From Apostichopus japonicus (lineage: Eukaryota > Echinodermata > Holothuroidea > Aspidochirotida > Stichopodidae): DNA of 64,000 bases. Under the pieces are notes generated by a model. It was not told the DNA's origin. It saw nothing but the letters and a program-made list of their open reading frames with translations, and searched no databases. The position numbers and the translations under genes were made by a program. Position 1 is the stretch's first letter, and the number at the start of each line of letters is the position of its first letter. Positions 3,001 to 63,921 of this stretch are shown one piece after another. The stretch is from contig NC_092564.1 in NCBI RefSeq assembly GCF_037975245.1, forward strand, positions 15,007,984 through 15,071,983, in the 5' to 3' direction.

Positions 3001-6000
3001 TGTGGGTGCAATTTGTTTGCTTGTCATGTGAAACATCTACACAATTAACTTCTTATGTAACTATCTCTTCTTTGTAGATCAAATAAATATGATAACTGAG
3101 CATCTTGCGTGTAAAACGTTAGATAATTTCTTGACCTTTGACCCAACCTCACGACAGGGAATTGAGAGGAGCGTCACGTCAGTGCGAGATGTTATGAAAC
3201 ATTTGTCAGGAGTGCTTGAAGGAATGGAAGTTATTAAATCCTACGGGGTGAGTTTCGTCCGTGACTGACAAATTATTGAGTTGAGCCAGTTTGTTTTCGC
3301 TGCAAACTCAGTAATCAATCTTAGCTCCGTATACAAACGGATATGTAGATGCTGAATGTGTCTCTTTATGAGTTTTAGATCTTGCCTTGTGATTAAATTG
3401 TGTCTAACCTTGCGGGAATGCTTGTTACGATTACATTAATTGAACGTAGTTGTTGATTTTGGTAGAGCAAAGGGCTCGTTCCTCCGAGGTCCCTGGCTGA
3501 AATCCCGTTCTGCTCGAAATTTTATTTACCCGGTTCGAGTTTCGAAGTCAGTTCTCCGTCGTTCATTTAGTTTTGTAAAATTTAGACCAATGTTAAAGAC
3601 CCATGGTTGGAGTTACGATGAATTGTTTACTACATATCCATGATGTCACCTCCCCAGCTAATACAACACAGTAAGCATAAACTATTAGTTGTTTACAATA
3701 TAGAAACCGGTGTCATGATCTCTATCGTTCTTAACAGCTTAAATGATCTTTAGTTACTAATTTAGTATCAGTCTAAATTTTATCGGTGTAAAACTATCGT
3801 CGACTTTATACTCTTCACATCTCGATCTATGATTTTGTATTTATTCCCCCTTAAGCTCCGTTGAAATGCAGTATTGATTAATATCTCTTCCCGCTGGGCC
3901 ATCGTGTCATTTTATTTATGTTTCCTCGATATTGCTGGAAAATGGACGATTTCTGTCATTATTGGTAGTCATTAAAATGTATAAATGATTCCATTCGGCC
4001 ACAGTTTCTTCATCCTTGTTTCTCAACGAAGAAGATTTTATACACCAAACAGGGACAATGTAAGTTGTATGACTTCTGTCTTGCAGAGGATGCACCAACG
4101 ATTTGCGCCCACAAGAAATCAGAGGTAAACCTGTTGTTTCCCTTCATTGTTCTGCTGGTGCTAAGTGCGTCTCATTATGCAGACGAAATGAGTCGAGTCT
4201 TTATAACATCTTCTCACATAATGTTTGGCTAAGGAAAAACGTTTCAAGTAAAGGAAGTAGCCTGAAAGGAAATATGAAATTATTCATTCATAATCAAGGA
4301 GGATGGGTCAGGCGGGCACCTCAAAAATGCTCGTTTTCATAAATAACTTCTCGTTTGTAATTTAAATAATCCTTCTTTATAATTGTATGATTTCTTTATA
4401 TTATTTAAACTACTCTTTTGCTAAAAATAAAGAGAATAAGAAAGAATTTAAATGTACCCGTTTGTTGACGAACATATACAAATAATGTATAGCATTGCTA
4501 AGAATGAAATGACAATTTATTTTTGGTTTGGAAATCTTTTACATTTCATTGACTTAATATTGTTTATGTTTATGATTCCGGTGTAATGCAATGCCTTGAA
4601 AGAACAGCTGTTCTCATCTCACTGTTTCTTCCTTTAACATTCCTTTCTTTCCTCTTTTTCACAACTGTCCTAACTTCTTGTTTTGTTTGTAGATGAAATC
4701 GGTGACGTTGAACCAGTTCGCTCCAGAAGCTTTCTACGGAAATGAATATTCAGCAGAGAGTGATGTCTGGTCAACAGCTGTTGTTATATGGGAAATTAAT
4801 TCAGCTGGTGAAAAGCAATCAAATAAAACTATCATAAAAATAAAAATACACACACTTTGTACATATTATATCGATCAAATAGTAGGCGAGCAAAAAGAAG
4901 TAAAATCAGCTTCTTCGCGTATACCTTACTTTGCCGTAACACCAAAATGCTACAATGTGAAACTATATACCGATGCTATAGCGAATGTATATATACTGTC
5001 ACGCATATATAGGAGTAGTAAATAATCATTGACGTACTCACGACTAAAAAATGAAGATCCACGAATTTGATACCAGTTCGACTTCAGTTTATCATTTATT
5101 TGGCTTTTGATCTGGCGACGGTAACATTTCCAAACCCACAAGTTAATTCAGAGGTTCAGAAGATTGATAAAAGTGAAATATACTAAAGAGAGCTCGCAGT
5201 GTTAAGTTGGCACGACTCGATTAGCTGTCTTGATACCAGAAAGTATGTTGTAACTAGGATAGTTAGGACCACTGCTATCTGCACAAATCAACGAAGTTAT
5301 AATGTTTAAGTAATTAAGAAAACCGAAGTAAGTGAATGCTTCCTTTGCAAAGGCTTGTTTTATTTTCAAACACCTTTTACAAAGGTAAGATGAGAGTAAT
5401 AATTTAGAAACATTAAAGGTTCAACTACTGCAACGTAAGGATATCAGTATTTGTTTGCTTTTTAGGTTATAAACCTTTCCCAATTAATGAGGAATACAAG
5501 CCAGGGGATGTCATTCCCATGCCAAAGACGCCATGGCCGGAGAAATATCTGCAGTTAAGGTAGCTTTATATGGATTATTAGTTACAAATGTCGATTCTAT
5601 ACTGGCATTTCCAGGAACTCAACCATTACTTCATATGTCTGCAGGTTTTACACTTTTTTGTATCATTTCTAATACTTCTGTTATCACTTACTGGCTGCTA
5701 CCATTTTTGACGACGAATTACACGAACATTAATCAACGAATTTAGGAAATAAACCCACAGCTGATAGAATGTCACTTTCCGCATTGGAGTAGTGAGAGGA
5801 GAAAAGGTTCCCTATACTGCTTAGTATCATTCAAATTAGACACGATTTATCTACATCTGGTCTCCTTCCCCGACCCCCACCTCTTACTGTCTTACATCAT
5901 GGTCCAGGTATACTATATTTCTTTTGTCTCTTTTTTGAGGTCAGGTGAGACATTTGCTGAAGAATTTAGAATGATTTTTTCGACTTTCGAATGACTTTGT

Positions 6001-6419
6001 TATTGTTCCACAGAAACACGCTTTTATTTGAATGCTGGAGTGAAAACATGTCCCTTCGACCATCTATACACCATCTGAGGGATTCTTTTAAAACGGTACT
6101 TATTTTAGATTACAACAGTAAACAGTATTTAAGGAAACAACTTGACATCCTTGCTCGTTTTATCCTGTCTGCATGGCAGAAATGTTCGTACTTAAACTAT
6201 CACGGTGATATATCAAGTTGACGTTATCAAACCCAGAAAATATAAAGAAGGAACAATGTCTGCTACAAAGTATTGATATAACAGGTTTTCCGTCTGTTTT
6301 ATTTTTCTCGACAGATTTTTGATAAGTTAATAGACAATAGCCTCTATGAGATACCGGTATCATCTTTGTATACAAGGATGATTTCTCCAACTGACGACTG
6401 CGTGGAAGGGAAAGAATGA
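1..6419 (+). CDS. Ig-domain pseudokinase receptor, copy A (5' end outside window, frameshift in membrane exon)
   Basis: Exons inferred by splice sites, phase and match to copies C and D: 1-236 (3' part of exon 1), 810-849, 1178-1242, 1924-2094, 2626-2736, 3078-3247, 4005-4124, 4693-4807, 5466-5559, 6014-6095, 6315-6419 (TGA). Exons 2-11 have the same lengths as in C and D and every junction keeps frame. They encode a juxtamembrane linker, a kinase-like domain (HPCF in place of HRDL, DFC in place of DFG, then FAPEAF, SDVW, CW-x6-RP) and a 34-residue tail with YEIP and YTRM. Exon 1 starts inside the last Ig domain (CDS frame from base 3) and has two extra T near 120-123 relative to C, giving an in-frame TGA at 129-131 within the membrane helix. 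The tail has Cys where C and D have the third tyrosine (DDCV versus DDYV). Either a decaying copy or a sequencing error in a T run; the intact downstream exons leave both open. Confidence 0.8.
3450..3521 (+). repeat. tRNA-derived relic in intron 6 of copy A
   Basis: The segment has a D-arm-like TTGGTAGAGC and a degraded T-arm-like stretch. The equivalents in copies C and D keep GGTTCAAATCCC, the B-box form. The acceptor arms do not pair, so this is an old tRNA pseudogene or SINE head that predates the duplication. Confidence 0.35.
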
Positions 6420-11610: not shown

Positions 11611-13032
11611 ATGGAGAGGAGAGGAAAAATCTGGTTTGTTGGAATCATTGCTAGCAGGCCAATTCAAATAATGTTTTTACTAGTCAATTTAGCAAACTTA
11701 GTTATGCTTTGCTTGGGAGAGGAAACTATTGTGATAAATAAATTATGGAAGGAACATATAATCCGATCAGAGGGACAAACAGTGACCTTACGCTGTATAA
11801 GTAATGGTAATGTCACAATGTTCCGAATAGAGACACTAAAGAACGACAGTCAGGCAAAGATTGTGATGAATTCATCGCTGCTTGAGGACTTCACTGGCAG
11901 TTATATTTTCCACTCCACGAAGAATGGATCAGACTTAATTAATGACTTAACTATTAAAGATGTCACCAGGGATTTTAACGGTTCCTTATTTCGATGCGTG
12001 GACCATATTACGTTCAATCCACAGGAGCTTTCATTGAGAGTGCTATACAGTCCAAGACGTGAATATCCACAGTGTACATCCAGTTCTACCTATCCAATAT
12101 ATTTCACTGATCAAATTGGTGAACCTTTTGATTTAACCTGTATCTCAGAAGAAGGAAATCCGAGAATAAAACTCTCCTTACAAAACACGCTGACACTGAT
12201 AAACAGTTCGTCCGTTACTCTTGGAGAGAATAAAACTCATCGATATGTTGAATTGAATGCTAAACTCGATAGTAAATGGAACAACAGTATGTTTTATTGT
12301 TACGTTGTACAATCTTCTCCAGGGATGGTTGATTATAGTGCTAATTGTTCATTTGGTCCAATACAGTTTGTGGATGAATTAACTATCATTACGAATACAT
12401 CGAATGTGTCATTTAAAGAAGGAAAGAAGATTATGTTTTCTTGTAAGAGTAATTTTGATGCTGCTTACAAACAATGGAACATAGTAGATATTCCGAAACA
12501 TGTTTCGTATTCCAGTTCAAATGATTCAGATTTGATATACTTAGAAATAGATGTTAGTACTTTGACAAAAGATACCCTAATAACATTAGACTGCTTTGTA
12601 TCTTATCGTGGTAGAAATTTGACCACGAATGTAACGGCCTGTGTCGAAGCTTCTGTAAATGAATCAATCTTACCTATTCTCGTTACCTTAGCCGCACTCT
12701 CAATGGTGCTCTCAATTTTACTAAGTATCGTCGTAATGAAAATAGTGAATAAAAGTCAGAAAAAACAAAATTATAACATAGATATATCAATAGACGGCTC
12801 TAATGACAGCATAGAAGGACACACATACACTACACCAGAAGAGAGTCAGTTAAATACAGGTTTACATATTGACAGATTATCTGTAGAGGAAAATCTTGAT
12901 TACGAAGAAATACCGACAGTAGCCTGTGACATGATACCTAATGTTGTATATGAGCCATGTTCTGTGGATGCATCATCATCAGCTATTCTAGATGAGAGGA
13001 TTCAGGGACCACAGCAAGGTAACTCGTCATAA
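11611..13032 (+). CDS. Ig-domain receptor with ITIM-like tail, kinase-less (copy B)
   Basis: A single 473-residue frame. Residues 1-36 form a signal peptide with hydrophobic core IMFLLVNLANLVMLCLG. Three Ig-like regions follow, with Cys pairs near 62/129, 177/230 and 278/328, extra Cys at 155 and 246, and many N-glycosylation sequons. The ectodomain is almost the same as in C and D up to VEAS (about 348). The rest differs: membrane helix about 353-376, then a 97-residue tail with YNID (388), YTTP (406), LDYEEI (429-434) and VVYEPC (445-450). LDYEEI fits the ITIM pattern [SIVL]xYxx[ILV] and also contains YEEI, the preferred Src-family SH2 ligand. No kinase exons follow; transposon-rich DNA lies downstream. 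Likely a plasma-membrane receptor. A donor-like CAAG|GTAACT at 13014-13021 could allow splicing to further exons. The inhibitory role is inference. Confidence 0.88.
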   Translation: MERRGKIWFVGIIASRPIQIMFLLVNLANLVMLCLGEETIVINKLWKEHIIRSEGQTVTLRCISNGNVTMFRIETLKNDSQAKIVMNSSLLEDFTGSYIFHSTKNGSDLINDLTIKDVTRDFNGSLFRCVDHITFNPQELSLRVLYSPRREYPQCTSSSTYPIYFTDQIGEPFDLTCISEEGNPRIKLSLQNTLTLINSSSVTLGENKTHRYVELNAKLDSKWNNSMFYCYVVQSSPGMVDYSANCSFGPIQFVDELTIITNTSNVSFKEGKKIMFSCKSNFDAAYKQWNIVDIPKHVSYSSSNDSDLIYLEIDVSTLTKDTLITLDCFVSYRGRNLTTNVTACVEASVNESILPILVTLAALSMVLSILLSIVVMKIVNKSQKKQNYNIDISIDGSNDSIEGHTYTTPEESQLNTGLHIDRLSVEENLDYEEIPTVACDMIPNVVYEPCSVDASSSAILDERIQGPQQGNSS

Positions 13033-29434: not shown

Positions 29435-30292
29435 CAGGGACGTAGCTAAGGCCTGATGATTGGGGGGGGGGGGGGGTGTAGTGGCTGAAAATCGGTTTTG
29501 AAGCCAGAAAATTCCAACTGCTGCTTTGTACCCCCACCCTCCCGCTACTCGTCAACGATACGGTCAGTGCCAGTCAGAAAACCCAATCCTTCGCGACTGC
29601 ACTTCTGTTACGAACTTGTTGCGATACATTTGTACCCACTGGCACTCATTTCAAAAACTTATTGCCCCCCCCCCCCCACCCCAACCAAATATTTTTGTGA
29701 AATTCGGGCAATATGCTGATAGCTTTTTTGATAATTTGCAATGTGTTTTTCAGTGGTTATACTGATATTATTATTACCCAACAATTATCACCAATACGGA
29801 AGGGTAATAAGACGGAAAATGATTGTGTGCTATTTGCATACGATGTAAAAACCGATGCATGCCTGTATGATATGCACATGATCATGTGTGATGCGCGCGT
29901 AGCGCGCGAAAAATTTTGGTTATATTTATCGGGCAAGTCGTTACACCCCCCCCCCCCCCCCCCCACAAAACAAATTGGGCTCCTACGCCTATGACGGTAG
30001 CTCTATTAGGCATTTTTTTTGTAGTATTCAAAATCATAAGAAGTTTTGTACGGTGGAGTATAAGAATCGCGAGAAACAATTTCCCAAAGTGGCAAGGAAA
30101 ACGTGGTAAATATGACCGGTTAAAGGTCAATTTTGACCGAAATTTAAAAAAAAATTTACATGAAAAGGCCTAGATAAGCTAGAGTGCGACAGTCGGAAAT
30201 TCCGACTGTCGCACTCCAATTTTCCAACTAGCGTCAGTTTTACCATGGCTTGGGGGTGAGACACACCCACACCCCCTCTAACGACGTCCCTG
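29435..30292. mobile_element. Possible DNA element with CAGGGACGT ends
   Basis: CAGGGACGTAGCTAAGG at the left and CCTCTAACGACGTCCCTG at the right are imperfect inverted repeats. The right end overlaps the 3' end of the hAT transposase frame, suggesting that it cut that gene. No target duplication seen. Confidence 0.4.
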
Positions 30293-30620
30293 CGCGATGA
30301 ATATGGAACACGATCACATGGTTCAGCCTCTGTTGAGTCATGGTGCTCCGTAGCCTTGTCTTCAAACGCCTCAGAGCACTAAAAGATCTCTCGGCTTCCG
30401 TCGAACTGGCAGAGGAGACGAGGAGCAACCGCAAGAGAGCTTCGACTTCACCAAACATAGCCCGTACCACTGGATTCATCAACTTGAATATTTGTCCATA
30501 CCCTTCAACCGACAACGAATTTAACTGGCCTCGAAATAAAGGCAGACTAAGCTTAAGATTGTTGGAGAGCTCAGGGTACCAACTCACGAGATCTGGGTGG
30601 AATTCTCCATTCAGCAACAT
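30240..30620 (-). pseudogene. hAT transposase fragment, C-terminal dimerisation domain
   Basis: The 126-codon minus-strand frame contains LLVSSASSTEAERSFSALRR followed by LKTRLRSTMTQQRLNHV, the hallmark of the hAT C-terminal dimerisation region (PF05699 type). The zinc-finger and RNase-H-like catalytic parts are missing, and the frame runs into a neighbouring element after FHIHR. An intact hAT transposase is several hundred residues long, so this is a non-functional remnant. Confidence 0.85.
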
Positions 30621-30801
30621 TGAGTGATATTCGAGGATATGAATCCTAAGATGTGTAAGCCGTAACCAAATAGAGCCACGACACTACTCTTTTTCCAAAT
30701 GTGTGGGGGGACATTTGATATTGTTTCAACCATCCATCGAAATGTGGGGGGGACGTGTCCCCCCGTCCCCCCCCCCCTGGATTGACGCCCATGCCCTCTG
30801 C

Positions 30802-37921: not shown

Positions 37922-40900
37922 ATGGAGAGGAGAGGGAAAATCTGTTTGTTTGGAACCATTGCCGCCAGTCCAATTCAAATAATGTTTTTCCTTGTCAATT
38001 TAGCAACCTTAGTTATGCTTTGCTTTGGAGAGGAAACTATTGTGCTTGATAGAATATGGAAGGAACATATAATCCGATCAGAGGGACAAACAGTGACCTT
38101 ACGCTATATAAGTAAAGATAGTATCACAATGTTCCGAATAGATACACTAAAGAACGACTATAAGGCAAAGATTGTGATGAATTCAACGCTGGTTGAGAAT
38201 TGCAATGACAGTTTTATATTCAACTCCACAAAGAATGGATCAGACTTTATTAATGACTTAACTATTAGAGATGTTACCAGGGAATTTAACGGTTACTCAT
38301 TTCTATGCGTGGACCATATTACGTTCAATCCACAGGAGCTTACATTGATAGTGCTATACAGCCCAAGACGTGAATATCCACAGTGTACATCCAGCTCTAC
38401 ATATCCAATATATTTCACTGATCAAATTGGTGAACCTTTTGATATAACCTGTATCTCAGAAGAAGGAAATCCAAGAATAAACCTCTCCTTACAAAACACG
38501 CTGACATTGATAAACAATTCGTCCATTACACTTGGAGAGAATAAAACTCATCGATATGTTGAATTGAATACTAAACTCTATAGTGAATGGAACAACAGTA
38601 TGTTTTACTGTTACGTTGTGCAATCTACTACAGGGATGGTTAGTTACAGTGCTCATTGTTCATTTGGTCCAATACAATTTGTGGATGAATTAACTGTCAT
38701 TACGAATACATCGAATGTGTCAGTTAAAGAAAGAAAGAAGATTATGTTTTCTTGTAAGAGTAATGTTGATTCTGCTTACAAACAATGGAATATAGTAGAT
38801 ATTCCGAAACATGTTTCATATTCAAGTTCAAATGATTCAGATTATATTTACTTAGAAATAGATGTTAGTAATTTGACTAAAGATACCCTAATAACATTAG
38901 CCTGCTTTGTATCTTATCGTGGTAGAAACTTGACCACGAATATAACAGCCTATGTCGAAGCTTCTGGAAGTAAAGTCATTTTTCCGTTGCCTGTTTTGGC
39001 ATTCATTGTCTTTCTGATTGTGCTCTTACTGGTCATTGCTAAAACGTGTGGAAGACAGCTACATTGTGAGGCCCGATGTAATAGAGCAAGAACCAGAGAT
39101 CCGCGTACAGTAAACAGGACAGAAACACAAAATGGCCGAAGTGAGTGTATGATATTTCATCTTGTAGGATTAGTAATAGACTTAGCAAACCTTACATCTT
39201 CATAAATATTTTTAACATCTTATATTTATAATTCCAAACTATTGTTTTCTGTAAGTTTGTAAGTCTGAACTTAGGCTAAGCCTTTGTTGTGCTAACAACA
39301 AGCCAGCAAGTATATTTCATCCCATGTGTATGTATTCATAGACACAATTTTTTTGTAACGCAGCCTGCTGTGATTGAAAAGCACATTGATTGCTATGCAT
39401 AAAATTGATGGAGTTAATCATACCAAACACCTTTTCGGTTTCCATGCAATGGACATAACATCTTTGATCCAATTAAAATAGGTAAGGTCAGTGCGCGAAA
39501 ATGAAATATTTACTGCCTTAATATATAATAAAAGATAACTATATTACCTTAAATGTATGATATATTACTCTGTATAACCATATTTTGTGTTCGTAATTGC
39601 TTAAGGTAACATCGAGGTGGAAGGAGTAAGGGGAGGGAGTGGAGTCGGGTAGCACGAAATGAAGTGTTTACCCAAAAACTATAATCGCTCTGTAAATTTC
39701 CATATTCTTTCACAGATGAAGAGAATGTACCCGTAACACGTCAGCAAACACCGAGGTAAAGCCGTTGATATTCAATACTTTACTTTACTAACTTAATCTA
39801 GGCATGTCTCTACTTCATCAAGGCACATTTTGTAGGGAGGGAGACATAACGAAGTGGACTTAATTAATTTGGTGATACAATTTCAAAACTTCAAGACCCC
39901 CATTGCCTCATTATACAGTTCGAACTTTAACCAACTGAGAGTTTCAGTCTAGAATATGGATAGTTCTTTCTATTGTAAAGATTTGGACACTCACATTGTA
40001 TGTTTAAATATGACAATTGCCTTGTATTGTTTTCATCCCAGGCTAATCATATTGTCATTTTCTGTATGATTTTCCTCCAAGGTCAGTTCTTCCCAGCTTG
40101 CCAGATGCGATTAATACTTCACATCATGAAAGAGAAATCGAGACATGTAGGTTTATGAAAATTATGTTTGATTTGCGTTTTGATTTTGAATGTGTAAAGC
40201 TCATTCTATGAACTAGTGACTAGTCTACAGATAGGGATGTTCAAATAAAAAATTTCAACGTTTTCTCGCCGAAGAACAATTATGGGGGAAGAAACGAAAA
40301 TGAAAACTAACAAGTTCAAAGCTGAAGGATATTCGTGTAGTCAGGGTAGTGAATGAGGTCTGATTATGTATTTAATATCTTGATTTCATTACTTTTGACA
40401 TGGAATCATAAATGCATAGGTAAATTATTTAAAAAGACTGTTGAATTACAGCGATTATGAACTAAAGTTAAAAGCAAGGGCGGCGGAACCGGGGGGCACA
40501 GGGGGCACGTGCCCCGCCCCCCCACTTTTCCTCAGGTTAAAAATTTGCCCATTTTCTACATAAAAATTGAGGTGTCTCAAGTTAGCAATTAGAGGCCAGG
40601 GAACCAGAATGAACACTCGGGAAGGGCCGTTTCCGGCCATCTAAGGGGTTTGTAAAACCCCAAAATTTCTTGTACGCTCCGCGCCAACAAATGGTGGCGC
40701 TCCGCTCAGATAGTCGTGCATACAACTTTGCAAATCCTGGCTACGCCCCTGACTTTTAATGAATTTTTGTTGGTCAAACTCAAAGCTATTTCGAATTGAA
40801 AAAAAGAATTGTTAAGATATTATCAAGAAATAAACTCTAATTCAGATGATTCCTACATTAGCAACTATATGTTTTCACCTCATTTTGTCTCAAAAGAAAA

Positions 40901-43900
40901 CTTGTTCCTTGTTTCCCAATTTGCACATTGGATATTGCAGTGCTATATGCATATTTTCCTTGAGGGGGGGGGGACGTTGATGGAGTGATGTGTATATGCA
41001 AATAAGATAATACAATAAGAGTTATAAAGGGTACTAAATATAATGCTGCATCAGTCCAATCGAATTTCTGCAAAGTGCCCTTTGATGTTGGTGCTCCCCC
41101 CCCCCCAGATTGAAAGTGCTTCCGCCGCCCTTGGTTAAAAGGATCGTTCTCAATGTTACCTAAACTTATAAAAATGATGTTCACATATTTCATTCTAGGA
41201 ATATTGAATATTGTTTTTTTCTACAAGAGAAGATGACTATGTGCCTGTTTGCCTTTCTTTTAGACTACTCTACAGTAACAACAGACACTTCGGGAAGTAA
41301 TCGGTTATTTAACGAAGACGATATTTGCCTTATGTTAAAGATGAAGACCGGGACACTTTACACGAGGTGGATGGGGACAATACCTGTCTCTCTTGGGGTC
41401 ACCAAATGTGTAGTCCTAACAACCCTCTCTGATGGTAAAGTGATATATATATAATCGATTTATCTGATATCAATAACTAGATGTATAGAATTAGATTTGT
41501 ATCCTACACAAAGATGATAAGGACCCGGCTGGTTGGTGCGATATTTTATAATTATAATTCCAAATCCAATTATTACACTGCACGGTTGGGGCATTCATAA
41601 TAAATTACTATTTTACAGCCAGTTTGGTGCTCCTTAACAGCAGCATAAACAAATGTGACCCCCCCCCTCCCATCCCAGAGTATAGGGCCTAGGCAAGTCT
41701 TAATTCAACTGATTTTCTATGACATGCTTCCGTGAAGAATACTACACGAGCAATAAAATATGCAGATATTAAAAAAAAAAAGTTCTGTCAACAAATATTG
41801 AAGTGATTCACAGATCTTCAAATTTGTCACATATGTTACATTGTCTGAAATAACGTTCAGTCATGGTATATCGTTTCGAAAAGATTTACTCACGTGTACC
41901 TGAACTAAGGCATATTACCAATATTTTCACTTTCTTCCTCGGATTCGTAGAAAGAGTTGTCAAACACAGAGACATCCACTGGGACAAATTTGTGAAAACG
42001 TCTTTAGACCTACCTGTGACGAATCAAGTCACGAAAATTGAAGGAATTGGGATCGTATATAGTGAGTGTTTATTCTTTCTATATAAGTTTTTGCTTTTCT
42101 TTTTCAGCAGTTGTAAGTTGTTTCTGCACCCGATCTTAATATTAAGAGATTTGTGAAGAAGAGAAACATGTTATGCTTCTTGCATGCAGTGAGAAAAAAC
42201 ATTAGGCCTGACGCAGTGCATAGTGTCAGGGCGTAGGGTTACAGCACCGTGACCTGAGGTCGATGATGGTGGCACGGGGAATATGAAGAGGGACATAATA
42301 TGGGAAAAAAGGTGTCTTCTCATTTTCGTAAAATAATTTACGAAAATGTGGGTGCAATTTGTTTGCTTGCCATGTGAAACATCTACACAACAACATGTTA
42401 CTCTTGGTAACTCCACAAGATCTAAGTGTTTTAATGTGAACTAACTTCTATAGTAACTATCTCTTCTTTGTAGATCAAATAAATATGATAACTGAACATC
42501 TTGCGTGTAAAACGTTAGACAATTACTTGAACTTTGACCCAACCTCACGTCAGGGAAGTGGGAGGAGCGTCACGTCAGTGCGAGATGTTATGGAACATTT
42601 GTCAGGAGTACTTGAAGGAATGGAAGTCATTAAATCCTACGGGGTGAGTTTCGTCCGTGACTGACAAAATATAGAGTTGAGCTGGTTTGGTTTCGCTGCA
42701 AACTCAGTAATCAATCTTGGTTCCGTGTACAAACGGATATGTAAATGCTAAATGTGTCCCTTTATGAGTTTTATATCTTGCCTTGTGATTAAATTGTGTC
42801 TAACCTTGCGGGAACGCTTGTTACGATTACAATAATTGAATGTATTTGTTGATTTGGTAGAGCAAAGGGCTCGTACCTCCGAGGTCCGTGGTTCAAATCC
42901 CGTTCTGTTCGAACATTTATTTACCCGGTTCGAATTTAAAAGTCAGTTCTCCGTCGTTCATTTTGTTTATAAAATTAGTTGACATTTCTTTTGTTAAAGA
43001 GCCATGGTTCGAGTTTCGATGTATTGTTTACTACATATCTATGATGTGACCTTCCCCCCAGCTTATACAACACAGTAAACATAAACTATTAGTTGTTTAC
43101 GATATAGAAACCGGTGTCATGATCTCTATTGTTCTTAACAGCTTAAGTGATCTATAGTTACTAATTAAATATCAGTCTAAATTTTATCGGTGAAAAACTA
43201 TCGTCGACTTTATACATCTTCACATCTCCATCAATGATTTTGTATTTATTCCCCCTTAAGCTCCGTTGAAATGCAGTATTGATTAATATTACTTACTGTT
43301 AGACAATAGTATCATTTTATTAATGTTTCCTCGATATTGCTGAAGAAACCCGACGATTTATGTCATGATTGGCAATCATGAAAATTATATCAATTCCAAT
43401 CCGCCACAGTTTCTCCATCCTTGTTTCTCAACGAAGAAGATTTTATACACCAAACAGGGACAATGTAAGTTGTATGACTTCTGTCTTGCTGAGGATGCAC
43501 CAACAATTTGCGCCATCAAGAAATCAGAGGTAAACCTGCTGTTTCCCTTAATTGTTCTGCTGGTCCTAAGTGCATCTCATTACGCAGACGAAATGAGTCG
43601 AGTCTTTAAAACTTCTCCTAATATAATGTTTGGCTAAGGAAATTTAAAGTAAAGGAAGTAGCCTGAAAAGAAATATGAAATTATTCATTCATAATCAGGG
43701 ACGACGGGCCAGCCGGGCACATGCCCTTCCAGTTTGGGGGATAACTTCAAAAATGCTCGTTTTCATAAATTACTTCTCGTTTGTAATTTAAATACCCCTT
43801 TTTATAATTTTATGCGTTCTTTATATTATTTAAACTGCTCTTTTTGCTGAAAATTAAAAGGAAAGAAAGAATTTAAATGTACCCGTTTATTGACAAACAT

Positions 43901-45840
43901 ACAAATAATGTATATTATTGCTACGAACGCACTGAGAAGTTAATCTTTGTTGGAAATTTTTCATTCTTCACTGATATAAAATTGTTTTTGTTTATTATTC
44001 CGGTGTAATTCAATGCCTTGAAAGAACAGCTGTTCTCATCTCACTGTTTCTTCCTTTAACATTCTTTTCTTTCCTTTTTAAAAAAAAATAAAACCTGTCC
44101 TAACTTCTAATTTTGTTTGTAGATGAAATCGGTGACGTTGAACCAATTCGCTCCAGAAGCTTTCGACCGAAATGAATATTCAGCAGAGAGTGATGTCTGG
44201 TCAACAGCTGTTGTTATATGGGAAATTATTTCAGCTGGTGAAAAGCAATCAAATAATACTATCATGAAAATAAAATACCAACGCTTTGTAAATATTATTC
44301 GATCAAAAAGTATGCGAGCATAAAGAGGTCAAATCAGCTTCTTCGCTATACCTTACTTTGCCGGAACACCAAAATGCTACAATGTGAAACTATATACCGA
44401 CGCTATAGCGAATGTATATATACTGTCACGCATATATAGGAATAGTAAATAATCATTGAGGTACTCACGATTAAAAAATGAAGATCCACGAATTTGATAC
44501 CAGTTCGACTTCAGTTTATCATTTATTTGGCTTTTGATCCGGCGACGGTAACGTTTCCAAACCCACAAGTTAATTCAGAGGTTCAGAAGATTGATAAAAG
44601 TGAAATATACTAAAGAGAGATCGCAGAGTTAAGTTGGCACGACTCGATATTCTGTCTTGATACCAGAAAGTATGTTGTTACTAAGATAGTTAGGACCACT
44701 GCTATCTGCACAAATCAACGAAGTTATAATGTTTAAGTAATTAAGAAAACCGAAGTAAGTGAATGCTTCCTTTGCAAAGGCTTGTTTTATTTTCAAACAC
44801 CTTTTACAAAGGTAAGGTGAGAGTAATAATTTAGAAACATTAAAGGTTCAACTACTGCAACGTAAGGATATCAGTATTTGTTTGCTTTTTCAGGTTATAA
44901 ACCTTTCCCAATTAATGAGGAATACAAGCCAGGGGATGTCATTCCCATGCCAAAGACGCCATGGCCGGAGAAATATCTGCAGTTAAGGTAGCTTCATAGG
45001 GATTATTAGTTACAAATGTCGATTCTATACTCTCATTTCCAGGAACTCAACCATTACTTCATATGTCTGGTTTTACACTTTTTTGTATCATTTCTAATAC
45101 TTCTGTTATCACTTACTGGCTGCTACCATTTTTTGACGACGAATTACACGAACATTAATCAACGAATTCAGGAAATAAACCCACAGCTGATAGAATGTCA
45201 CTTTCCGCATTGGAGTAGTGAGAGGAGAAAGGGTTCCCTATACTGCTTAGTATCATTCAAATTAGACACGATTTATCTATATCTGGTGTCCTTCCCCGAC
45301 CCCCAACTCTTACTGTCTTACATCATGGTCCAGGTATACTATATTTCTTTTGTCTTTTTGAGGTCAGGTTAGACATTTGCTGAAGAATTTAGAATGACTT
45401 TTTCGACTTTCGAATGACTTTGTTATTGTTCCACAGAAACACGCTTTTATTTGAATGCTGGAGTGAAAACATGTCCCTTCGACCATCTATACACCATCTG
45501 AGGGATTCTTTCAAAACGGTACTTATTTTAGATTACAACAGTAAACAGTATTTAAGGAAACAACTTGACATCCTTGCTCGTTTTATCCTGTCTGCATGGC
45601 AGAAATGTTCGTATTTATACTATCACGGTGATATATCAATGTGACGTTATCAAACCCAGAAAATATAAAGAAGACAATGTCTACTACAAAGTATAGATAT
45701 AACAGGTTTTCCGTTTGTTTGTTTTTTCTCGACAGATTTTTGATAAGTTAATAGACAATAGCTTCTATGAGATACCGGTATCATCTTTGTATACACGGAT
45801 GATTTCTCCAACTGACGACTACGTGGAAGGAAAAGAATGA
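37922..45840 (+). CDS. Ig-domain receptor pseudokinase, copy C (intact, 11 exons, 763 aa)
   Basis: Exons: 37922-39140, 39716-39755, 40082-40146, 41264-41434, 41951-42061, 42474-42643, 43410-43529, 44123-44237, 44894-44987, 45437-45518, 45736-45840. All junctions keep frame, 2,292 coding bases. Signal peptide 1-36; three Ig-like regions to about 348; membrane helix 352-373; basic linker; kinase-like domain about 455-729; tail 730-763. Kinase features: single Gly (471) in the loop, Thr494 for the VAVK Lys, Leu517 at the likely alpha-C Glu, HPC at 595-597 for HRD, Lys602 for the catalytic-loop Asn, DFC at 615-617, APE at 642-644, SDVW at 655-658, CW-x6-RP at 709-718. The activation segment lacks tyrosine. 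The tail has YEIP (740), YTRM (748, a YxxM PI3K-type site) and DDYV (758). Ig1 has Tyr62 for the usual Cys and a new Cys94. Probably a signalling scaffold receptor without phosphotransfer; ligand unknown. Confidence 0.88.
40475..41133. mobile_element. hAT MITE in intron 3 of copy C with perfect 8-bp target duplication
   Basis: It starts CAAGGGCGGCGGA, ends TCCGCCGCCCTTG, and GTTAAAAG is duplicated on both sides (40467-40474, 41134-41141). The empty site GTTAAAAGGATCGTTCTC is present in copies A (about 1664) and D (about 53630), so insertion followed the duplication. The duplication fits the hAT pattern nTnnnnAn. Confidence 0.93.
42846..42916 (+). repeat. tRNA-derived relic in intron 6 of copy C
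   Basis: TTGGTAGAGC and GTGGTTCAAATCCC have D-arm and T-arm/B-box form, with a CTCG/CGAG stem around an anticodon-like loop. The acceptor stem does not form. Shared with A and D, hence older than the array. Confidence 0.4.
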
Positions 45841-50769: not shown

Positions 50770-51822
50770 ATGGAGAGGAGAGGAAAAATCTGTTTTGTTG
50801 GAACCATTGCTGCCAGTTCAATTCAAATACTGTTTTTCCTTGTCAATTTAGCAAACTTAGTTATGCTTTGCTTCGGAGAGGAAACTATTGTGATTGATAC
50901 AGTATGGAAGGAACATATAATCCGATCAGAGGGACAAACAGTTACCTTACGCTGTATAAGTAAGGGTAATGTCACAATGTTCCGAATAAAGACACTAAAG
51001 AACGACAGTAAGGCAAAGCGGATTGTGATGAATTCAACGCTGGTTGAGAATTACACTGGCAGTTTTATATTCAACTCCACAAAGAATGGATCAGACTTTA
51101 TTAATGACTTAACTATTAGAGATGTCACCAGGGAATTTAACGGTTACTTATTTCGATGCTTGGACCATGTTATGTTCAATTCACAGGAGCTTACATTGAT
51201 AGTGCTATACAGTCCAAGACGTGAATATCCACAGTGTACACCCAGTTCTACTTATCCAATATATTTTACTGATCAAATTGGTGAACCTTTTGATACAACC
51301 TGTATCTTACAAAACGGTAGTCCAAGAATAAACCTCTCCTTACAAAACACTCACACACTGATAAACAGTTCGTCCGTTACTCTTGGAGGGAATAAAACTC
51401 ATCGATTTGTTGAATTGAATGCTAAACTCGATAGTAAATGGAACAACAGTATGTTTTATTGTTACGTTGTGCAATCTTCGCCAGGGATGGTTAATTACAG
51501 TGCTAATTGTTCATTTGGTCCAATACATTTTGTGGACGAATTAACTATCATTACGAATACATCGAATGTGTCATTTAAAGAAGGAAAGAAGATTATGTTT
51601 TCTTGTAAGACTAATGTTAATGCTGCTTACAAACAATGGAACATAGTAGATATTCCGAAACATGTTTCGTATTCCAGTTCAAATGATTCAGATTTGATAT
51701 ACTTAGAAATAGATGTTAGTAATTTGACAAAAGATACCCTAATAACATTAGACTGCTTTGTATCTTATCGTGGTAGAAAGCTGACCACAACTATAACGCT
51801 TCGGCAAGTGAATTCATCTTAA
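50770..51822 (+). CDS. Secreted-type Ig ectodomain frame of copy D
   Basis: The 350-residue frame has the family signal peptide and three Ig-like regions with canonical Cys at position 62 and an extra residue (KAKRIV). Relative to C, 13 bases around VEAS are missing and about 6 are gained nearby, so the frame ends at TAA 51820-51822, before the membrane helix. If expressed as read it would give a soluble ectodomain. It may equally be a disabling mutation. Confidence 0.75.
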   Translation: MERRGKICFVGTIAASSIQILFFLVNLANLVMLCFGEETIVIDTVWKEHIIRSEGQTVTLRCISKGNVTMFRIKTLKNDSKAKRIVMNSTLVENYTGSFIFNSTKNGSDFINDLTIRDVTREFNGYLFRCLDHVMFNSQELTLIVLYSPRREYPQCTPSSTYPIYFTDQIGEPFDTTCILQNGSPRINLSLQNTHTLINSSSVTLGGNKTHRFVELNAKLDSKWNNSMFYCYVVQSSPGMVNYSANCSFGPIHFVDELTIITNTSNVSFKEGKKIMFSCKTNVNAAYKQWNIVDIPKHVSYSSSNDSDLIYLEIDVSNLTKDTLITLDCFVSYRGRKLTTTITLRQVNSS

Positions 51823-54800
51823 TGTTACTTGTACCTATTTTGACATTCATTGTCATTCTGATTGTGCTCTTACTGGTCATTGCTAAAACGTGTGAAAGAC
51901 AGCTACATTGTGAGGCCCGAGGTTACAGAGAAAGAACCAGAGATCTTCAGACAGTAAACAGGACAGAAACACAAAATGGCCGAAGTGAGTGTGTGATATT
52001 TCATCCTGTAGGATCAGTAGTATAGACTGAGTAAACGCTACATCTTCATAAATATTTTTAACATCTTATATTTATAATTCCAAACTGTTGTTTTCTGAAA
52101 GTTTGTGAGTCTGACTTAGGCTAAGCCTTTGTTGTGCCAACAACAAGCCAGTAAGTATATTTGATCTCATGTGTATGTATTCATGGACACAAATTTGTTG
52201 TAACGCATCCTGCTGTGATTAAAAACCACATTGATTGCTATGCATAAAATTGATGGAGTTAATCATACCAAACACCTTTTCGGTTTCCATGCAATGGACA
52301 TAACATCTTTGATCCAATTAAAATAGGTAAGGTCAGCGTGCGATATAAAAAAGATAACTTTGTTACCTTAAATACCAGGCGGAGTGTATAGCCTAGTGGT
52401 TAACGCCGGCGTCTCCCAGTCATGAGATCCCCGGTTCGATTCCCCGCCGACATCAATGTGTGTCGTCTGGCAAGGGTGTTGTTCAATAACAACTTCCTGA
52501 CATGGACGTCAAATGGATGTGTGCCGAGAGATTGGCTTCGGTCAGCTTGCGAGTCTACAAGCCTCCATGGCTTCTTTCGCGAGTTCCTGCTTGCGGGAAG
52601 ATCACATATACATACATACATACAAATGTATATATATATTACTATGTATAACCATATTTTGTGTTCGTAATTACATACCGTAATCTAATTTCGAGGTGGA
52701 AGGAGTAGGGGGAAGGAATGGAGTCGGTGCAACACGAAATGAAGTGTTTACCTCAAAACCATAATCGCTCGGTAAATTTACGTATTCTTTCACAGATGGA
52801 GATAATATACCCGTAACAAGTCAGCAAATACAGAGGTAAAGCCTTCGATATTCAATACTTTACTATACTAAGTTAAACTAGGCAAGTCTCTACTTCATCA
52901 AGGTACCTTTTGTAGGGAGTGAGTCTTAGGGAGACATAACGAAGTGGACTTAATTAATTTGGTGATACAATTTCAAAAATTCAAGACCTCCATTGCCTCA
53001 TTATACAGTTCGAACTTTCCTCAAACTGAGAGTTTCAGTCCAGAATATGGATAGTTCTTCCGATTTTATATTTTGTATATGGCATTTGTTTTGTATTGTT
53101 TTCATCTCAGGTGAATCATATTCTTATTTTCTTTATGATTTTCCTCCAAGGTCAGTTCTTCCCAACTTGCCAGATGAGATTAATACTTCACATCATGAAA
53201 GAGAAATCGAGACATGTAGGTTTATAAAAGTTATTCATTAACGTACAATAAACCTCAAGTGGCCAAAGTCATATTGTACACAAAGTTTCATATGGGATAT
53301 ATGAAACAATTTTAAACGACCTTAAAAGAAAAACAAAAATAACGCGTTTTGAGTTTGAATGTGTAAAGCTCATTCCCTATCTGACTAGCTGAGGAACTTG
53401 ACATAGAGATGATCAAATAAACATTTTCAACGTTTTCTCGCCAAAGAACAATTATGGAAGAAAAAAACGAAAAATAACAAATTCAAAGCTGAAGGATATT
53501 CGTTTAGTCAGGGTAGTGAGGTGTCATTATGTATTTATTATCTTGATTTCATTACATTAGATATGGAATCATGAATACATAGGTAAATTATTGAAAAAGA
53601 CTGTTGAATTACAACGATTATGAACTAAAGTTAAAAGGATCGTTCTCAATGTTACCTAAACTTATAAAAATGATGTTCACATATTTCATTCTAGGAATAT
53701 TGAATATTGTTTTTTCTACAAAAAAAGATGGTCATTTGCCTGTTTGCCTTTCTTTTAGACTACTCTACAGTAACAACAGACACTTCGGGAAGTAATCGGT
53801 TATTTAACGATGACGATATTTGCCGTATGTTAAAGATGAAGACCGGGACACTTTTCACGAGGTGGATGGGGACAATACTTGTCTCTCTTGGGGTCACCAA
53901 ATGTGTAGTCCTAACAACCCTCTCTGATGGTAAACTGATATATATAATCGATTTATCTGATATCAATAACAAGATGTATAGAATTAGATTTGTATCCTAC
54001 ACAAAGATGATTAGGACCCGACTGGTGTGATATGTTATAATTGGTTACATTTCAATTCCAAGAAGGATTACACTGCATGCTTGGGGCATTTTGAATATAA
54101 TACTTTACTATTTCACAGCCAGTTTGGTGCTCCTTAACAGCAGCATATACAAATAAGACTGCCCCACCCATCCCCAGAGTACAGGGCTTAGGCAAGTCTT
54201 ATTTCAACTGAGTTTTATGACATGCTTCCGTGAAAAATACTACACGAGCAATGAAATATGCAGATATTAAAAAAAAGATGTCATGACAACAAATATTGAA
54301 ATGAGTCACTGATCTTCAAAGTTGTCACCTATAATATGTTACATTGTCTGAAATATCGTTCAGTCATGTTATATCATTGCGAAAAGATTTTACTCACATG
54401 CACCTAAACTAAGGCATATTACCAATATTTTCACTTTCTTCTTCGTATTCGTAGAAAGAGTTGTCAAACACAGAGACGTCCACTGGGATAAATTTGTGAA
54501 AACGTCTTTAGACCTACCGGTGACGAATCATGTCACGAAAGTTGAAGGAATTGGGATCGTATATAGTGAGTGCTTATTCTTTCTATTTCAGTATTTGTTT
54601 TAATTTTCAGCCGTTCATACTTTATTCTGCAACTGATCTTAATATTCAGAGATGTGTGAAAAAGAGAAACATGTTATGCTTCTTGAATGCCGGGAAGAAA
54701 TCATCAGGCCTGATGAGTGCTGGTGTCAGGGCGTGGGGTTACAGCACCGTGACCTGAGGTCAATGATGGTGGCACGGGAAATATGGAGAGGGCCAAAATA

Positions 54801-57800
54801 GAGGGAAAAGGATAGTGTCTTCTCATTTTCGTAATATAATTTACGAAAATAATTGATGAAAATGTGGGTGCAATTTGTTGGCTTGCCATGTGAAACTTCT
54901 ACACAGCAACATGTTACTTTTGGTAACTCCACAAGATCTAAGTGAATAATGCGAATTAACTTCTAATGTAACTATCTCTTCTTTGTAGATCAAATAAATA
55001 TGATAACTGAGCATCTTGCGTGTAAAACGTTAGATAATTACTTGACCTTTGACCCAACCTCACAACAGGGAAGTGGGAGGAGCGTCACGTCAGTGCTAGA
55101 TGTTATGAAACATTTGTCAGGAGTACTTGAAGGAATGGAAGTCATTAAATCCTACGGGGTGAGTTTCGTCCGTGACTGACAAAATATAGAGTTGAGCTGG
55201 TTTGGTTTCGCTGCAAACTCTGCAGTAATCAATCTTGGTTCCGTGTACAAACGGATATGTAAATGCTAAATGTGTCTCTTTATGAGTTTTAGATCTTGCC
55301 TTGTGATTAAATTGTGTCTAACCTTGCGGGAACGCTTGTTACGATTACAATAATTGAATGTAGTTGTTGATTTGGTAGAGCAAAGGGCTCGTACCTCCGA
55401 GGTCCGTGGTTCAAATCCCGTTCTGTTCGAACATTTATTTACCCGGTTCGAATTTAAAAGTCAGTTCTCCGTCGTTCATTAAGTTTATAAAATTAGTTGA
55501 CATTTCTTTTGTTAAAGAGCCATGGTTCGAGTTTCGATGTATTGTTTACTACATATCTATGATGTGACCTTCCCCCCAGCTTATACAACACAGTAAACAT
55601 AAACTATTAGTTGTTTACGATATAGAAACCGGTGTCATGATCTCTATTGTTCTTAACACCTAAGTGATCAATAGTTACTAATTAAATATCAGTCTAAATT
55701 TTATCGGTGAAAAACTATCGTCGACTTTATACATCTTCACATCTCCATCAATGATTTTGTATTTATTCCCCCCAAAGCTCCGTTGAAATGCAGTATTGAT
55801 TTATATCACTTCCCGCTGAGCCATCGTATCATTTTATTTATGTTTCTTCGATATTGCTGGGGGGAAAAACAACGATTTATGTCATTATTGGCAGTCATGA
55901 AATTCACTCATTCATGAAATCTATTTCATTCGGTCACAGTTTCTTCATCCTTGCTTCTCAACGAAGAAGATTTTATACACCAGACAGGGACAATGTAAAT
56001 TGTATGACTTCTGCCTTGCCGAGGATGCACCAACGATTTGCGCCATCAAGAAATCAGTGGTAAATCTGTTGTTTCCCTTCATTGTTCTGCTGGTCCTAAG
56101 TGCGTCTCATTATCCAGACTAATGAGTCGAGTCTTTATAACATCTCCTTATATAATGTTTGGCTAAGGAAATATGTTTCAAGTAAAGGAAGTAGCCTGAA
56201 AAGAAATATGAAATTATTCATTCATAATCAGGGACGGCGGGCCAGGCGGGTACATGGGGCACATGCCCTTCCAGTTTGAGGGGATAACCTTAAAAATGCT
56301 CGTTTTCATAAATTAATTCTCGTTTGTAATCAAATTCCCCTTCTTTGAAACTTGTATGCGTTCTTTATATTATTTAAACTTTTTGCTGATAAGAAAAAGA
56401 AAGAATTTAAATGTACCCGTTTGTTGACGAACATATGCAAATAATGTATAGCATTGCTAAGAATGAAATGACAATATATTTTTGGTTGGAAGCCTTTTAC
56501 ATTTCATTGATTTAATATTGTTTATGTTTATGATTCCGGTGTAATGCAATGCCTTGAAAGAACAGCTGTTCTCATCTCACTGTTTCTTCCTTTAATGTTC
56601 CTGTCTTTCCTCTTTTTTTACACCTGTTCTTACTTCTTGTTCTGTCTGTAGATGAAATCAGTGACATTGAACCAATTCGCTCCAGAAGCTTTCTACCAAA
56701 ATGAATATTCAGCAGAGAGTGATGTCTGGTCAACAGCTGTTGTTATATGGGAAATTATTTCAGCTGGTGAAAAGCAATGAAATAAAACTATCATGAAAAA
56801 TAAAAATACACACGCTTTGTATATATCATATCGATCAAATAGTATGCGAGCAAGAAGAAATAAAACCAGCTTCTTCGCGTATACCTTACTTTGCCGTAAC
56901 ACCAAATGCTATAATGTGGAAGTATATCGATGCTAAACAATATAGTGATTTTTTCCAATTACATATAAACGCTGCAAATTTATACTGCCAGGCTATCAAT
57001 TCAGATTCAGATTAAAACAGTTTCAGTGTAATGTAACTATACATTACTACTAAAGTGTTTCTTTGATTGGCTATCAATTCTGTGTAATATATTTGATAGA
57101 AGTGTGTTAAGTTTACACCCGGGGAACAATTCCTTTAAAGCCAACATATTTTACAAAGGTAAGATGAGAGTAATCATTTAGAAACATTAAATGTCCACCA
57201 ACAACGTTAGGATATCAGTATTTGTTTGCTTTTTCAGGTAATAAACCCTTCCCAATTAATGAGGAATACAAGCCAGGGGATGTCATTCCACTGCCAAAGA
57301 CGCCATGGCCGGAAACATATATGCAGTTAAGGTAGAGATGAACTATGCCCTTACTTCATATGTCTGGATTTGCACCTCTTTGTATCATTCTTAAAACTTC
57401 TGTTATCACTTACTGGTTGCTATAATTTAAGTCGACGAATTACATAAATATTAATCAACGAATTTAGGGAAGGAACCCACAGGGATAGAATGTCATATCT
57501 CTCCGCAGTGGATTAGTTGATGGTGAGGATATAAGGTTCCCTAGACTTTGTCTCCTTATTTGGAGGTGACGTTAGATATTTGCTGAAGAATTTAGAATGA
57601 TTTTTGCGACTTTCGAATGCCTTTGTTATTGTTCCACAGAAACACACTTTTATTTGATTGCTGGAGTGAAAACATTTCCCTTCGACCATCTATTCACCAC
57701 CTGAGGAATTCTTTTAAAACGGTAATTATTTCAGATTAAAACAGTAAACAGTATTTAAGCACACTATTTGACATCCTTGCTCGTTTTATCCTGTCTGCAT

Positions 57801-58043
57801 GGCAGAAACGTTCGTACTTATAATATCACGATGATATATCAATGTGACGTTATGAAACCCAGAAAATATAAAGAAGACAATGTCTACTACAAAGTATAGA
57901 TATAACAGGTTTTCCGTTTGTTTGTTTTTTCTCGACAGATTTTTGATAAGTTAATAGACAATAGCTTCTATGAGATACCGGTATCATCTTTGTATACACG
58001 GATGATTTCTCCAACTGACGACTACGTGGAAGGGAAAGAATGA
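50770..58043 (+). CDS. Ig-domain receptor pseudokinase, copy D (frameshifted before membrane helix)
   Basis: Exons: 50770-51984, 52796-52835, 53151-53215, 53759-53929, 54455-54565, 54989-55158, 55940-56059, 56652-56766, 57238-57331, 57640-57721, 57939-58043. Exon 1 is 1,215 bases, so it is out of phase by a net -4 against copy C; exons 2-11 match C in length and keep frame. The membrane segment is intact in the shifted frame (from 51822). The kinase-like region has the same lost catalytic residues (HPC, DFC) and the same YEIP, YTRM, DDYV tail. Exon 7 ends in GTG where A and C have GAG. Intron 1 carries a SINE, and part of intron 8 (about 56930-57150) is unlike A and C. Retention of ten clean exons argues that the frame break is recent, an assembly error, or tolerated. 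Confidence 0.82.
52378..52630 (+). mobile_element. tRNA-derived SINE in intron 1 of copy D
   Basis: The head has an A-box (TAGCCTAGTGGTTAACGC) and B-box (GGTTCGATTCC), then a non-tRNA body and a CATA-repeat tail. Copies A and C lack it at the same place (TTAAATGTATGATATATT), so it entered after duplication. Confidence 0.8.
55364..55435 (+). repeat. tRNA-derived relic in intron 6 of copy D
   Basis: Equivalent to 42846-42916, with TTGGTAGAGC and GTGGTTCAAATCCC. Confidence 0.4.
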
Positions 58044-63608: not shown

Positions 63609-63921
63609 ATAGACGGACCTCGCATAAACAGATTAAGATGTTACAAATATAGACGTAGCCGGATTAATATTTAGTAGATATTACTAATGTATTCTCCCGG
63701 CTCCTCCTATTAGTGGCTTCTCCGTTGTAGTCATCGTGTAAACATCCAATCATTAACCACTTTTTCTACAAACAGTTGAGATAAAAACGGAATTCTGAGA
63801 AAAAGCGTTGAAGTTTTTAGATAAAACGTCAAAACTTCCTCAATGTCTTAGGTTCCTGAAAACCGCAATTTTCTTCTCAAACCCGTCGCTTAAGAGGTGG
63901 AGTTGCTTCTTCGCCGCATTC

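What the first reader, a model, noticed from the sequence alone, without database searches (positions are those of the whole stretch)
37922..45840. Tandem family of Ig receptors whose kinase domain has lost its catalytic residues
Copies A, C and D encode Ig ectodomain, membrane helix and a tyrosine-kinase-like domain in which the VAVK Lys is Thr, HRD is HPC, the catalytic Asn is Lys and DFG is DFC, while APE, SDVW and CW-x6-RP persist. The same losses in all three copies imply that an already dead kinase was duplicated and kept. I know of no named family with this set of motifs.
Basis: partly seen in the sequence, partly recalled or inferred. Interest (0 to 1): 0.88.

Follow-up and report, generated by a model that had tools for sequence, protein, structure and literature searches.

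The report
Large family of dead kinase receptors
In what is probably a sea cucumber genome, a tandem set of immunoglobulin-type cell-surface receptors carries a tyrosine-kinase-like domain without its catalytic residues, and it is one branch of a family of roughly ninety similar genes that selection has preserved, probably as docking platforms rather than enzymes.

Summary
The motifs are real. Copy C (37922-45840) has 11 exons with GT/AG borders and encodes 763 aa: Ig-type ectodomain, membrane helix, tyrosine-kinase fold (PF07714, E 1.3e-26) with VAVK Lys>Thr, HRD>HPC, Asn>Lys, DFG>DFC. Two corrections. First, of the three window copies only C is intact; A and D are frameshifted in exon 1. In the whole 150-kb array two of six pseudokinase-type copies (K1, C) are open. 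Second, it is not a local family: 58 further loop exons reading HP[GA][LF][ST]TKK lie on nine other contigs, none with a stop, 57 of 58 with Cys at the DFG glycine. Tail-exon hits raise the estimate to roughly 90 loci. Selection is purifying (array dN/dS 0.15-0.46; dS saturated or nearly so between branches). A tail YEIP-x4-YxxM stands in 20 of 20 tails fetched by similarity. The array genes look like chimeras: the same Ig head also sits on a single-exon receptor with a short tyrosine tail (copy B). Best reading: ErbB3-like, trans-phosphorylated docking co-receptors. Loss of catalytic residues is shown; the signalling route is inferred. Published A. japonicus papers report receptor-kinase and 'Fgfr' expansions; whether these are the same genes is untested.

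The parts
37922..45840 (+). Copy C: intact 11-exon gene, 763 aa, Ig-type ectodomain + membrane helix + pseudokinase + Tyr tail; exons 37922-39140, 39716-39755, 40082-40146, 41264-41434, 41951-42061, 42474-42643, 43410-43529, 44123-44237, 44894-44987, 45437-45518, 45736-45840
37922..39140 (+). Copy C exon 1: signal-peptide-like start, Ig-type ectodomain, membrane helix
   Evidence: the Ig assignment rests on the near-identical copy B
41264..41434 (+). Copy C exon 4: degenerate glycine loop (KTGTLYTRWMG) and Thr in place of the VAVK Lys
43410..43529 (+). Copy C exon 7 (120 nt): HPCFSTKK and DFC in place of HRDLAARN and DFG
44123..44237 (+). Copy C exon 8: APE and SDVW retained
45437..45518 (+). 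Copy C exon 10: CW-x6-RP retained
45736..45840 (+). Copy C exon 11: C-terminal tail NSFYEIPVSSLYTRM (YxxP and YxxM)
1..6419 (+). Copy A (its ATG lies outside, before the window start): kinase exons open, 2-nt insertion in the membrane helix of exon 1
50770..58043 (+). Copy D: kinase exons open, frame-shifting indels at the ectodomain/membrane-helix border of exon 1
11611..13032 (+). Copy B: single-exon receptor, 473 aa, same Ig head, different membrane helix and a short tyrosine-bearing tail (with LDYEEI)

Best explanation
Copy C is a member of an old, dispersed family of receptor tyrosine pseudokinases. The family shares the loss of the VAVK Lys, the HRD Arg-Asp, the catalytic Asn and the DFG Gly, and the altered domain has been multiplied to roughly 90 loci under purifying selection (shown by sequence; the exact number is an estimate). 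In the C4 array this pseudokinase tail is joined to the Ig head of a single-exon receptor family, giving paired receptors: the same head on a pseudokinase tail (A, C, D) or on a short tyrosine tail (B) (the shared head is shown; the joining event is inferred). Most likely the pseudokinase cannot phosphorylate; it acts as an ErbB3-like co-receptor that an active partner kinase phosphorylates on the conserved C-terminal YEIP and YxxM tyrosines, which then recruit SH2 proteins such as PI3K p85 (inferred from motifs). The diversified Ig heads suggest recognition of variable ligands, possibly immune (inferred, weakest step).
For: Catalytic residues replaced in 6 of 6 array copies and in 8 of 8 relatives with larger gene regions read. 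Of 28 places that I chose from the hits, 27 gave a matching loop, all 27 with HP[GA], Lys for Asn, and DFC; L031 gave none. 58 pattern loci: 58 of 58 no stop and AG acceptor, 57 of 58 GT donor 120 nt on, 57 of 58 Cys at the DFG Gly. Exon borders with the expected phase were found in the relatives that were spliced. dN/dS 0.145-0.46 over 15 array pairs; against five relatives dS is saturated or near it with dN 0.27-0.61. YEIP-x4-YxxM in 20 of 20 tails fetched by similarity; 42 of 58 loop loci have a tail hit 0.5-8 kb downstream on the same strand. B and C share 89.8% nucleotide identity from about 270 nt before the ATG to near the ectodomain end. Control: 16 of 16 kinase exons read from other tyrosine-kinase genes of the same genome, 12 of them from expanded sets, keep the catalytic Asp, Asn and DFG.
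Against: No transcript or protein data. Only C and K1 are open in the array, so this branch may be decaying. One relative (C16a) has an in-frame stop in exon 6. The tails were found with queries that hold YEIP and YxPM, so 20 of 20 is not an unbiased count; 16 of 58 loops had no tail hit and three of eight relatives (C12h, C16b, C12i) showed no recognisable exon 11. The DFG Asp is retained in 55 of 58 loops, and the residue aligned with the alpha-C Glu is acidic in most members, so nucleotide binding is not excluded. The single ITIM-like motif of B could be chance.
Confidence: 0.55

Rival explanations
1. The pseudokinase is an allosteric activator or dominant-negative partner: its kinase fold dimerises with an active receptor kinase and switches it on or off, the tail being secondary.
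For: C-lobe landmarks are invariant across the six aligned members (SDVW, PE of APE/PPE, CW, RP), and other kinases of the genome keep their catalytic residues. HER3 allosterically activates HER2 (abstract of PMC8889928 in the listing).
Against: No dimer interface tested; no partner known; the conserved tail is not explained.
Confidence: 0.25
2. The C4 array is mostly decaying: its pseudokinase copies are relics of recent duplication, and only the single-exon B-type receptors function there.
For: Four of six pseudokinase-type copies carry a frameshift or nonsense change (K2, K3, A, D), while four of four B-type copies have open frames of 480-481 codons, stop to stop.
Against: C and K1 are open throughout; dN/dS among array copies is 0.145-0.46, though this may partly reflect earlier constraint; the wider family is constrained.
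Confidence: 0.15
3. The domain still transfers phosphate by an unorthodox mechanism, as a few proteins once called pseudokinases do.
For: DFG Asp retained in 55 of 58 loops; the position aligned with alpha-C Glu is mostly acidic; purifying selection.
Against: Lys of beta 3, Asp of HRD and Asn of the loop are all replaced, and the glycine loop is degenerate.
Confidence: 0.05

Closest known systems
HER3/ErbB3 (receptor tyrosine pseudokinase)
   Same: Membrane receptor with a kinase fold lacking essential catalytic residues; tyrosine-bearing tail for SH2 docking (the ErbB3 YxxM motifs are recalled, not from a call).
   Different: HER3 keeps VCIK, HRN-x4-N and DFG (table passage of PMC13259870); here T, HP[GC]-x4-K and DFC. 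The ectodomain is Ig type. Roughly 90 loci instead of one gene.
PTK7/CCK4
   Same: Ig ectodomain (recalled), one membrane helix, receptor pseudokinase.
   Different: PTK7 has VLVK, HKD-x4-N and ALG; it does not share this signature.
FGF receptors
   Same: With the family profile, most of the best solved-structure matches are FGFR1-4, after one EGFR construct; with copy C alone the best are Fes, Eph, EGFR and FGFR. Ig ectodomain (recalled).
   Different: FGFRs have the intact catalytic loop and DFG (FGFR1 rows of the alignment); this family does not. No tree was built, so descent from FGFR is not shown.
Reported A. japonicus 'Fgfr' and 'tyrosine-protein kinase receptor' expansions (PMC6018497, PMC5638244)
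   Same: Same probable species; expanded receptor-kinase genes; 38 'Fgfr' genes, described as activated during gut regeneration (passages).
   Different: The passages seen treat the genes as receptor kinases; 'pseudokinase' occurs 0 times in either main text. Gene identity could not be matched; the HGD-type clusters are an equally possible match.

Membership tests
Protein tyrosine kinase fold (PF07714) | Profile match above curated cut-off | tested here: met
   Copy C 93.9 bits, three relatives 89.6-104 bits, cut-off 23.1
Active receptor tyrosine kinase | VAVK Lys, HRD Asp, loop Asn, DFG | tested here: not met
   Thr/Ser, HP[GCA], Lys, DFC in copy C, array copies and relatives
Receptor tyrosine pseudokinase | Membrane receptor with kinase fold lacking essential catalytic residues | tested here: met
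   Spliced copy C; hydrophobic helix after the ectodomain
Receptor tyrosine pseudokinase | Absence of phosphotransfer shown biochemically | not testable with these tools
   Needs purified protein
PTK7/CCK4 | VLVK, HKD-x4-N, ALG motif set | tested here: not met
   Compared with the table passage in PMC13259870
ErbB3-like docking receptor (works like) | Conserved tail tyrosines in SH2-docking context | tested here: met
   YEIP-x4-YxxM in 20 of 20 tails fetched by similarity; 16 of 58 loop loci had no tail hit
ErbB3-like docking receptor (works like) | Trans-phosphorylation by an active partner and PI3K binding | not testable with these tools
   Needs experiments
Paired or inhibitory immune-type Ig receptor | Same Ig head on two tails, one with an ITIM-like motif | tested here: inconclusive
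   Shared head shown; LDYEEI in 4 of 4 B-type copies, but one motif could be chance; the motif definition is recalled

The most novel reading that the evidence does not exclude
Sea cucumbers have evolved a receptor system of roughly 90 catalytically dead kinase tails that serve as interchangeable phosphotyrosine docking modules under diversified Ig heads, with paired short-tail receptors in the same array. Part of the 'Fgfr/receptor kinase expansion' credited with regeneration would then be non-catalytic.
Probability: 0.35. Interest if true: 0.86.

Novelty: new variant of a known kind. Interest (0 to 1): 0.73.

Why it matters
Humans have eight receptor tyrosine pseudokinases (abstract of PMC13259870, listing). 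One animal genome with some tens to ninety loci of a single receptor pseudokinase family, sharing the same losses and under purifying selection, would be an unusual natural experiment on what a dead kinase does. It also bears on published claims that link expanded sea cucumber receptor kinases to regeneration or to the nervous system (passages of PMC6018497 and PMC5638244).

Tried and rejected
Rejected: (1) sequencing error or chance as the source of the motifs: they recur on other contigs. (2) A C4-only event: same calls. (3) A general decay of expanded kinase sets in this genome: 12 exons from such sets (clusters on C17, C18, C19, C21; dispersed copies on C4, C14, C20) and 4 other kinase exons keep Asp, Asn and DFG, 16 of 16; two of the dispersed copies have a stop beside it. 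(4) My first reading that the alpha-C Glu is lost: the profile alignment puts mostly acidic residues there, so the claim was dropped. Led nowhere: structure prediction of the ectodomain (mean pLDDT 35.5; no fold search was run). A shared membrane helix between array genes and relatives was not found convincingly. No phylogenetic tree was built. Other echinoderm genomes could not be searched here; this is the largest gap. Rows dropped before counts: C16a (in-frame stop), C11a (no exon 9 found) and C12i (exons 6, 9, 11 not found) were left out of alignment A2 and of the dN/dS with relatives, which hold C plus 5 of 8 relatives. Exon 5 was left out of the array dN/dS because K1 exon 5 is 15 nt shorter, and exon 11 was cut to 84 nt. 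In the tail pairing the six C4 tails and three weak hits near C12:9.86 Mb were left out. The splice borders were chosen by the expected phase, so the shared phases are partly imposed.
Full report
WHERE IT IS. The window is C4:15007984-15071983 of a 671,581,487-base genome in 35 contigs. The total size and two contig lengths (C16 46,036,110; C23 18,203,763) fit the Apostichopus japonicus assembly of PMC10344927 (671.60 Mb, 23 chromosomes of 18.21-46.02 Mb, 34 scaffolds; passages). The species name is therefore an inference.

THE OBSERVATION. Copy C begins with ATG at 37922 and ends with TGA at 45840. Eleven exons joined at GT/AG borders give 763 residues. Pfam finds the kinase domain (PF07714 93.9 bits, cut-off 23.1; PF00069 60.4 bits). 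A profile of six members aligned to EGFR puts Thr on the VAIK lysine. The glycine loop is degenerate (K-x-G-x-x-Y-x-RWMG; one relative, L108, lacks part of this). Copies A and D have exons 2-11 of the same lengths as C, but A carries a 2-nt insertion in the membrane helix and D frame-shifting indels just before it.

THE ARRAY. The Ig exon finds 10 copies on C4 between 14.926 and 15.073 Mb, one of them (K3) in pieces. Six are followed by pseudokinase exons: K1, K2, K3, A, C, D. K1 and C are open throughout (K1 with a 15-nt shorter exon 5 and a changed C-terminal end, 764 codons); K2 has one stop, in exon 8; K3, A and D are frameshifted in exon 1. Four are single-exon receptors with a short tyrosine-bearing tail (B and three outside the window), all with open frames. 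B and C are 89.8% identical in DNA from about 270 nt before the ATG to near the end of the ectodomain, after which membrane helix and tail differ.

A GENOME-WIDE FAMILY. A protein search with the pseudokinase domain hits many other contigs (its counts are lower bounds). Of 28 such places that I fetched, 27 gave a loop exon and all 27 read HP[GA], Lys at the Asn position and DFC; L031 gave none. A degenerate pattern for HP[GA][LF][ST]TKK[IMV] matches 58 places on C3, C11, C12, C13, C15, C16, C17, C18 and C19, with 0 for the reversed control. All 58 were read: 58 of 58 have no stop and an AG acceptor; 57 of 58 have a GT donor exactly 120 nt on (L074 has GG); 57 of 58 have Cys at the DFG glycine (L070 reads DFY); the Asp is kept in 55 of 58 (others EFC, YFC, NFC). 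HPG and TKK belong to the pattern and are not independent; frame, borders and Cys are. For scale, the strict canonical pattern HRDLAARN[IMV] has 27 matches; it misses many canonical loops, so this is no census. Tail-exon searches give hits near 42 of the 58 loops, none near 16, and 27 tail hits that were the partner of no loop. Four of these 27 were opened and all four hold a loop that differs slightly from the pattern (SSKK, TTRK, STRK, SLKK), each with HPG and DFC. The estimate of roughly 90 loci (58 + 27 + 6) rests on this. It includes 23 tail places not opened, and some tails may be second exons of one gene (two lie 1.5 kb apart at C12:1.307 Mb); directly read loops are 58, the 6 array copies, the 4, and 2 outside the pattern (L033, L035).

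STRUCTURE OF THE RELATIVES. Eight relatives were read over about 13 kb each. The kinase exons that were found stand in the same order; in one (C12i) exons 6, 9 and 11 were not found, and exon 9 or 11 is missing in three others. Seven were spliced with borders of the expected phase. Thr (seven) or Ser (C12i) stands for the lysine, HPG (seven) or HPA (C16a) for HRD, and DFC for DFG in all eight. C16a has an in-frame stop in exon 6. Upstream exons of two (C18a, C16b) score above cut-off as C2-set Ig domains. No exon resembling the C4 ectodomain at better than E 0.46 was found in the eight; the upstream part of C17a reads N, so that one was not testable. So the C4 genes combine a head otherwise found in single-exon receptors (58 of the 90 matches lie on C11) with a tail otherwise found under other Ig exons. 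The simplest account is a chimera; the direction is inferred, with only weak similarity of the B tail to C11-type tails.

SELECTION. Among six array copies, exons 4 and 6-11, dN/dS is 0.145-0.46 over 15 pairs. Between C and five relatives dS is saturated or near it while dN is 0.27-0.61. Across 55 distinct loop exons mean pS is 0.63 and mean pN 0.19. The dead domain has been held as a protein for a long time.

CONTROL. Other tyrosine-kinase genes and expanded sets exist here. Sixteen of their exons were read: 16 of 16 keep the catalytic Asp, Asn and DFG; eight, from C17, C18, C19 and C21, read HGD for HRD, and three dispersed copies read DRD. The losses are specific to this family among the sets looked at.

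HOW IT MAY WORK. Shown: catalytic residues replaced, fold recognisable, selection maintained. The last exon typically reads IFE.L...SFYEIP-x4-YxxM: 20 of 20 tails fetched by similarity hold YEIP-x4-YxxM, as does copy C; five of eight relatives have it with YE[IVT]P and three showed no such exon. YxxM is the docking motif of PI3K p85 SH2 domains and YxxP of Crk/Nck-type SH2 domains (recalled). Inferred: an active partner phosphorylates these tyrosines, as with HER3. Allosteric control of a partner is the main rival.

KNOWN AND NEW. The eight human receptor pseudokinases have other motif sets (table passage, PMC13259870). Full-text searches of the held open-licence library for pseudokinases with sea cucumber, echinoderm, sea urchin kinome and lineage-specific expansion listed nothing of this kind; echinoderm hits there concern MLKL, RIPK, KSR3, venus kinase receptors and general kinome evolution (listings; passages of PMC8662651 only). 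Two A. japonicus genome papers report expanded tyrosine-protein kinase receptors (PMC5638244, passages) and 38 Fgfr genes that mostly form their own clade and are activated in gut regeneration (PMC6018497, passages). Neither main text contains 'pseudokinase'. With the family profile the best solved matches are mostly FGFRs, so part of that reported expansion may be dead receptors; gene lists were not available, and the HGD-type clusters fit as well. An expansion of receptor-kinase-like genes is thus already in print; their catalytic death, the shared signature and the paired heads were not found in print in these searches. Subscription papers, such as the sea urchin kinome paper of 2006 (seen only as a reference), were not read.

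Noticed in passing
G000:C11, 25.9-28.3 Mb (six fetched: L052, L054-L057, L059): Large set of single-exon Ig receptors (58 of the 90 matches are on C11; some genes give two). The six read have open frames of 435-508 codons, short tyrosine-bearing tails, and 27-32% identity to the array ectodomain.
   Followed up: partly
G000: C17 13.2-13.6, C18 8.7-14.3, C19 8.8-9.1, C21 8.5-13.5 Mb (L112-L119): A second expanded tyrosine-kinase set keeps catalytic Asp, Asn and DFG but reads HGD instead of HRD in all eight exons read.
   Followed up: partly
G000: C4, C9, C14, C19, C20 (L120-L123 read): Dispersed near-identical kinase exons reading LI[HD]RDLAARN; three of the four read have DRD for HRD and two of four a stop in the activation segment; they look like a repeated or decaying set.
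   Followed up: no
window 63025-63663 (-): Open frame resembling a non-LTR reverse transcriptase (by eye, not searched).
   Followed up: no
window 30240-30683 (-): Open frame resembling the C-terminal part of a hAT-type transposase (by eye, not searched).
   Followed up: no
window 13100-37800: About 24 kb between copies B and C without any match to the copy C exons, so the spacing in the array is uneven.
   Followed up: no
L038 (upstream of C17a): About 5 kb read N (gap or withheld), so the ectodomain of that relative could not be read.
   Followed up: no
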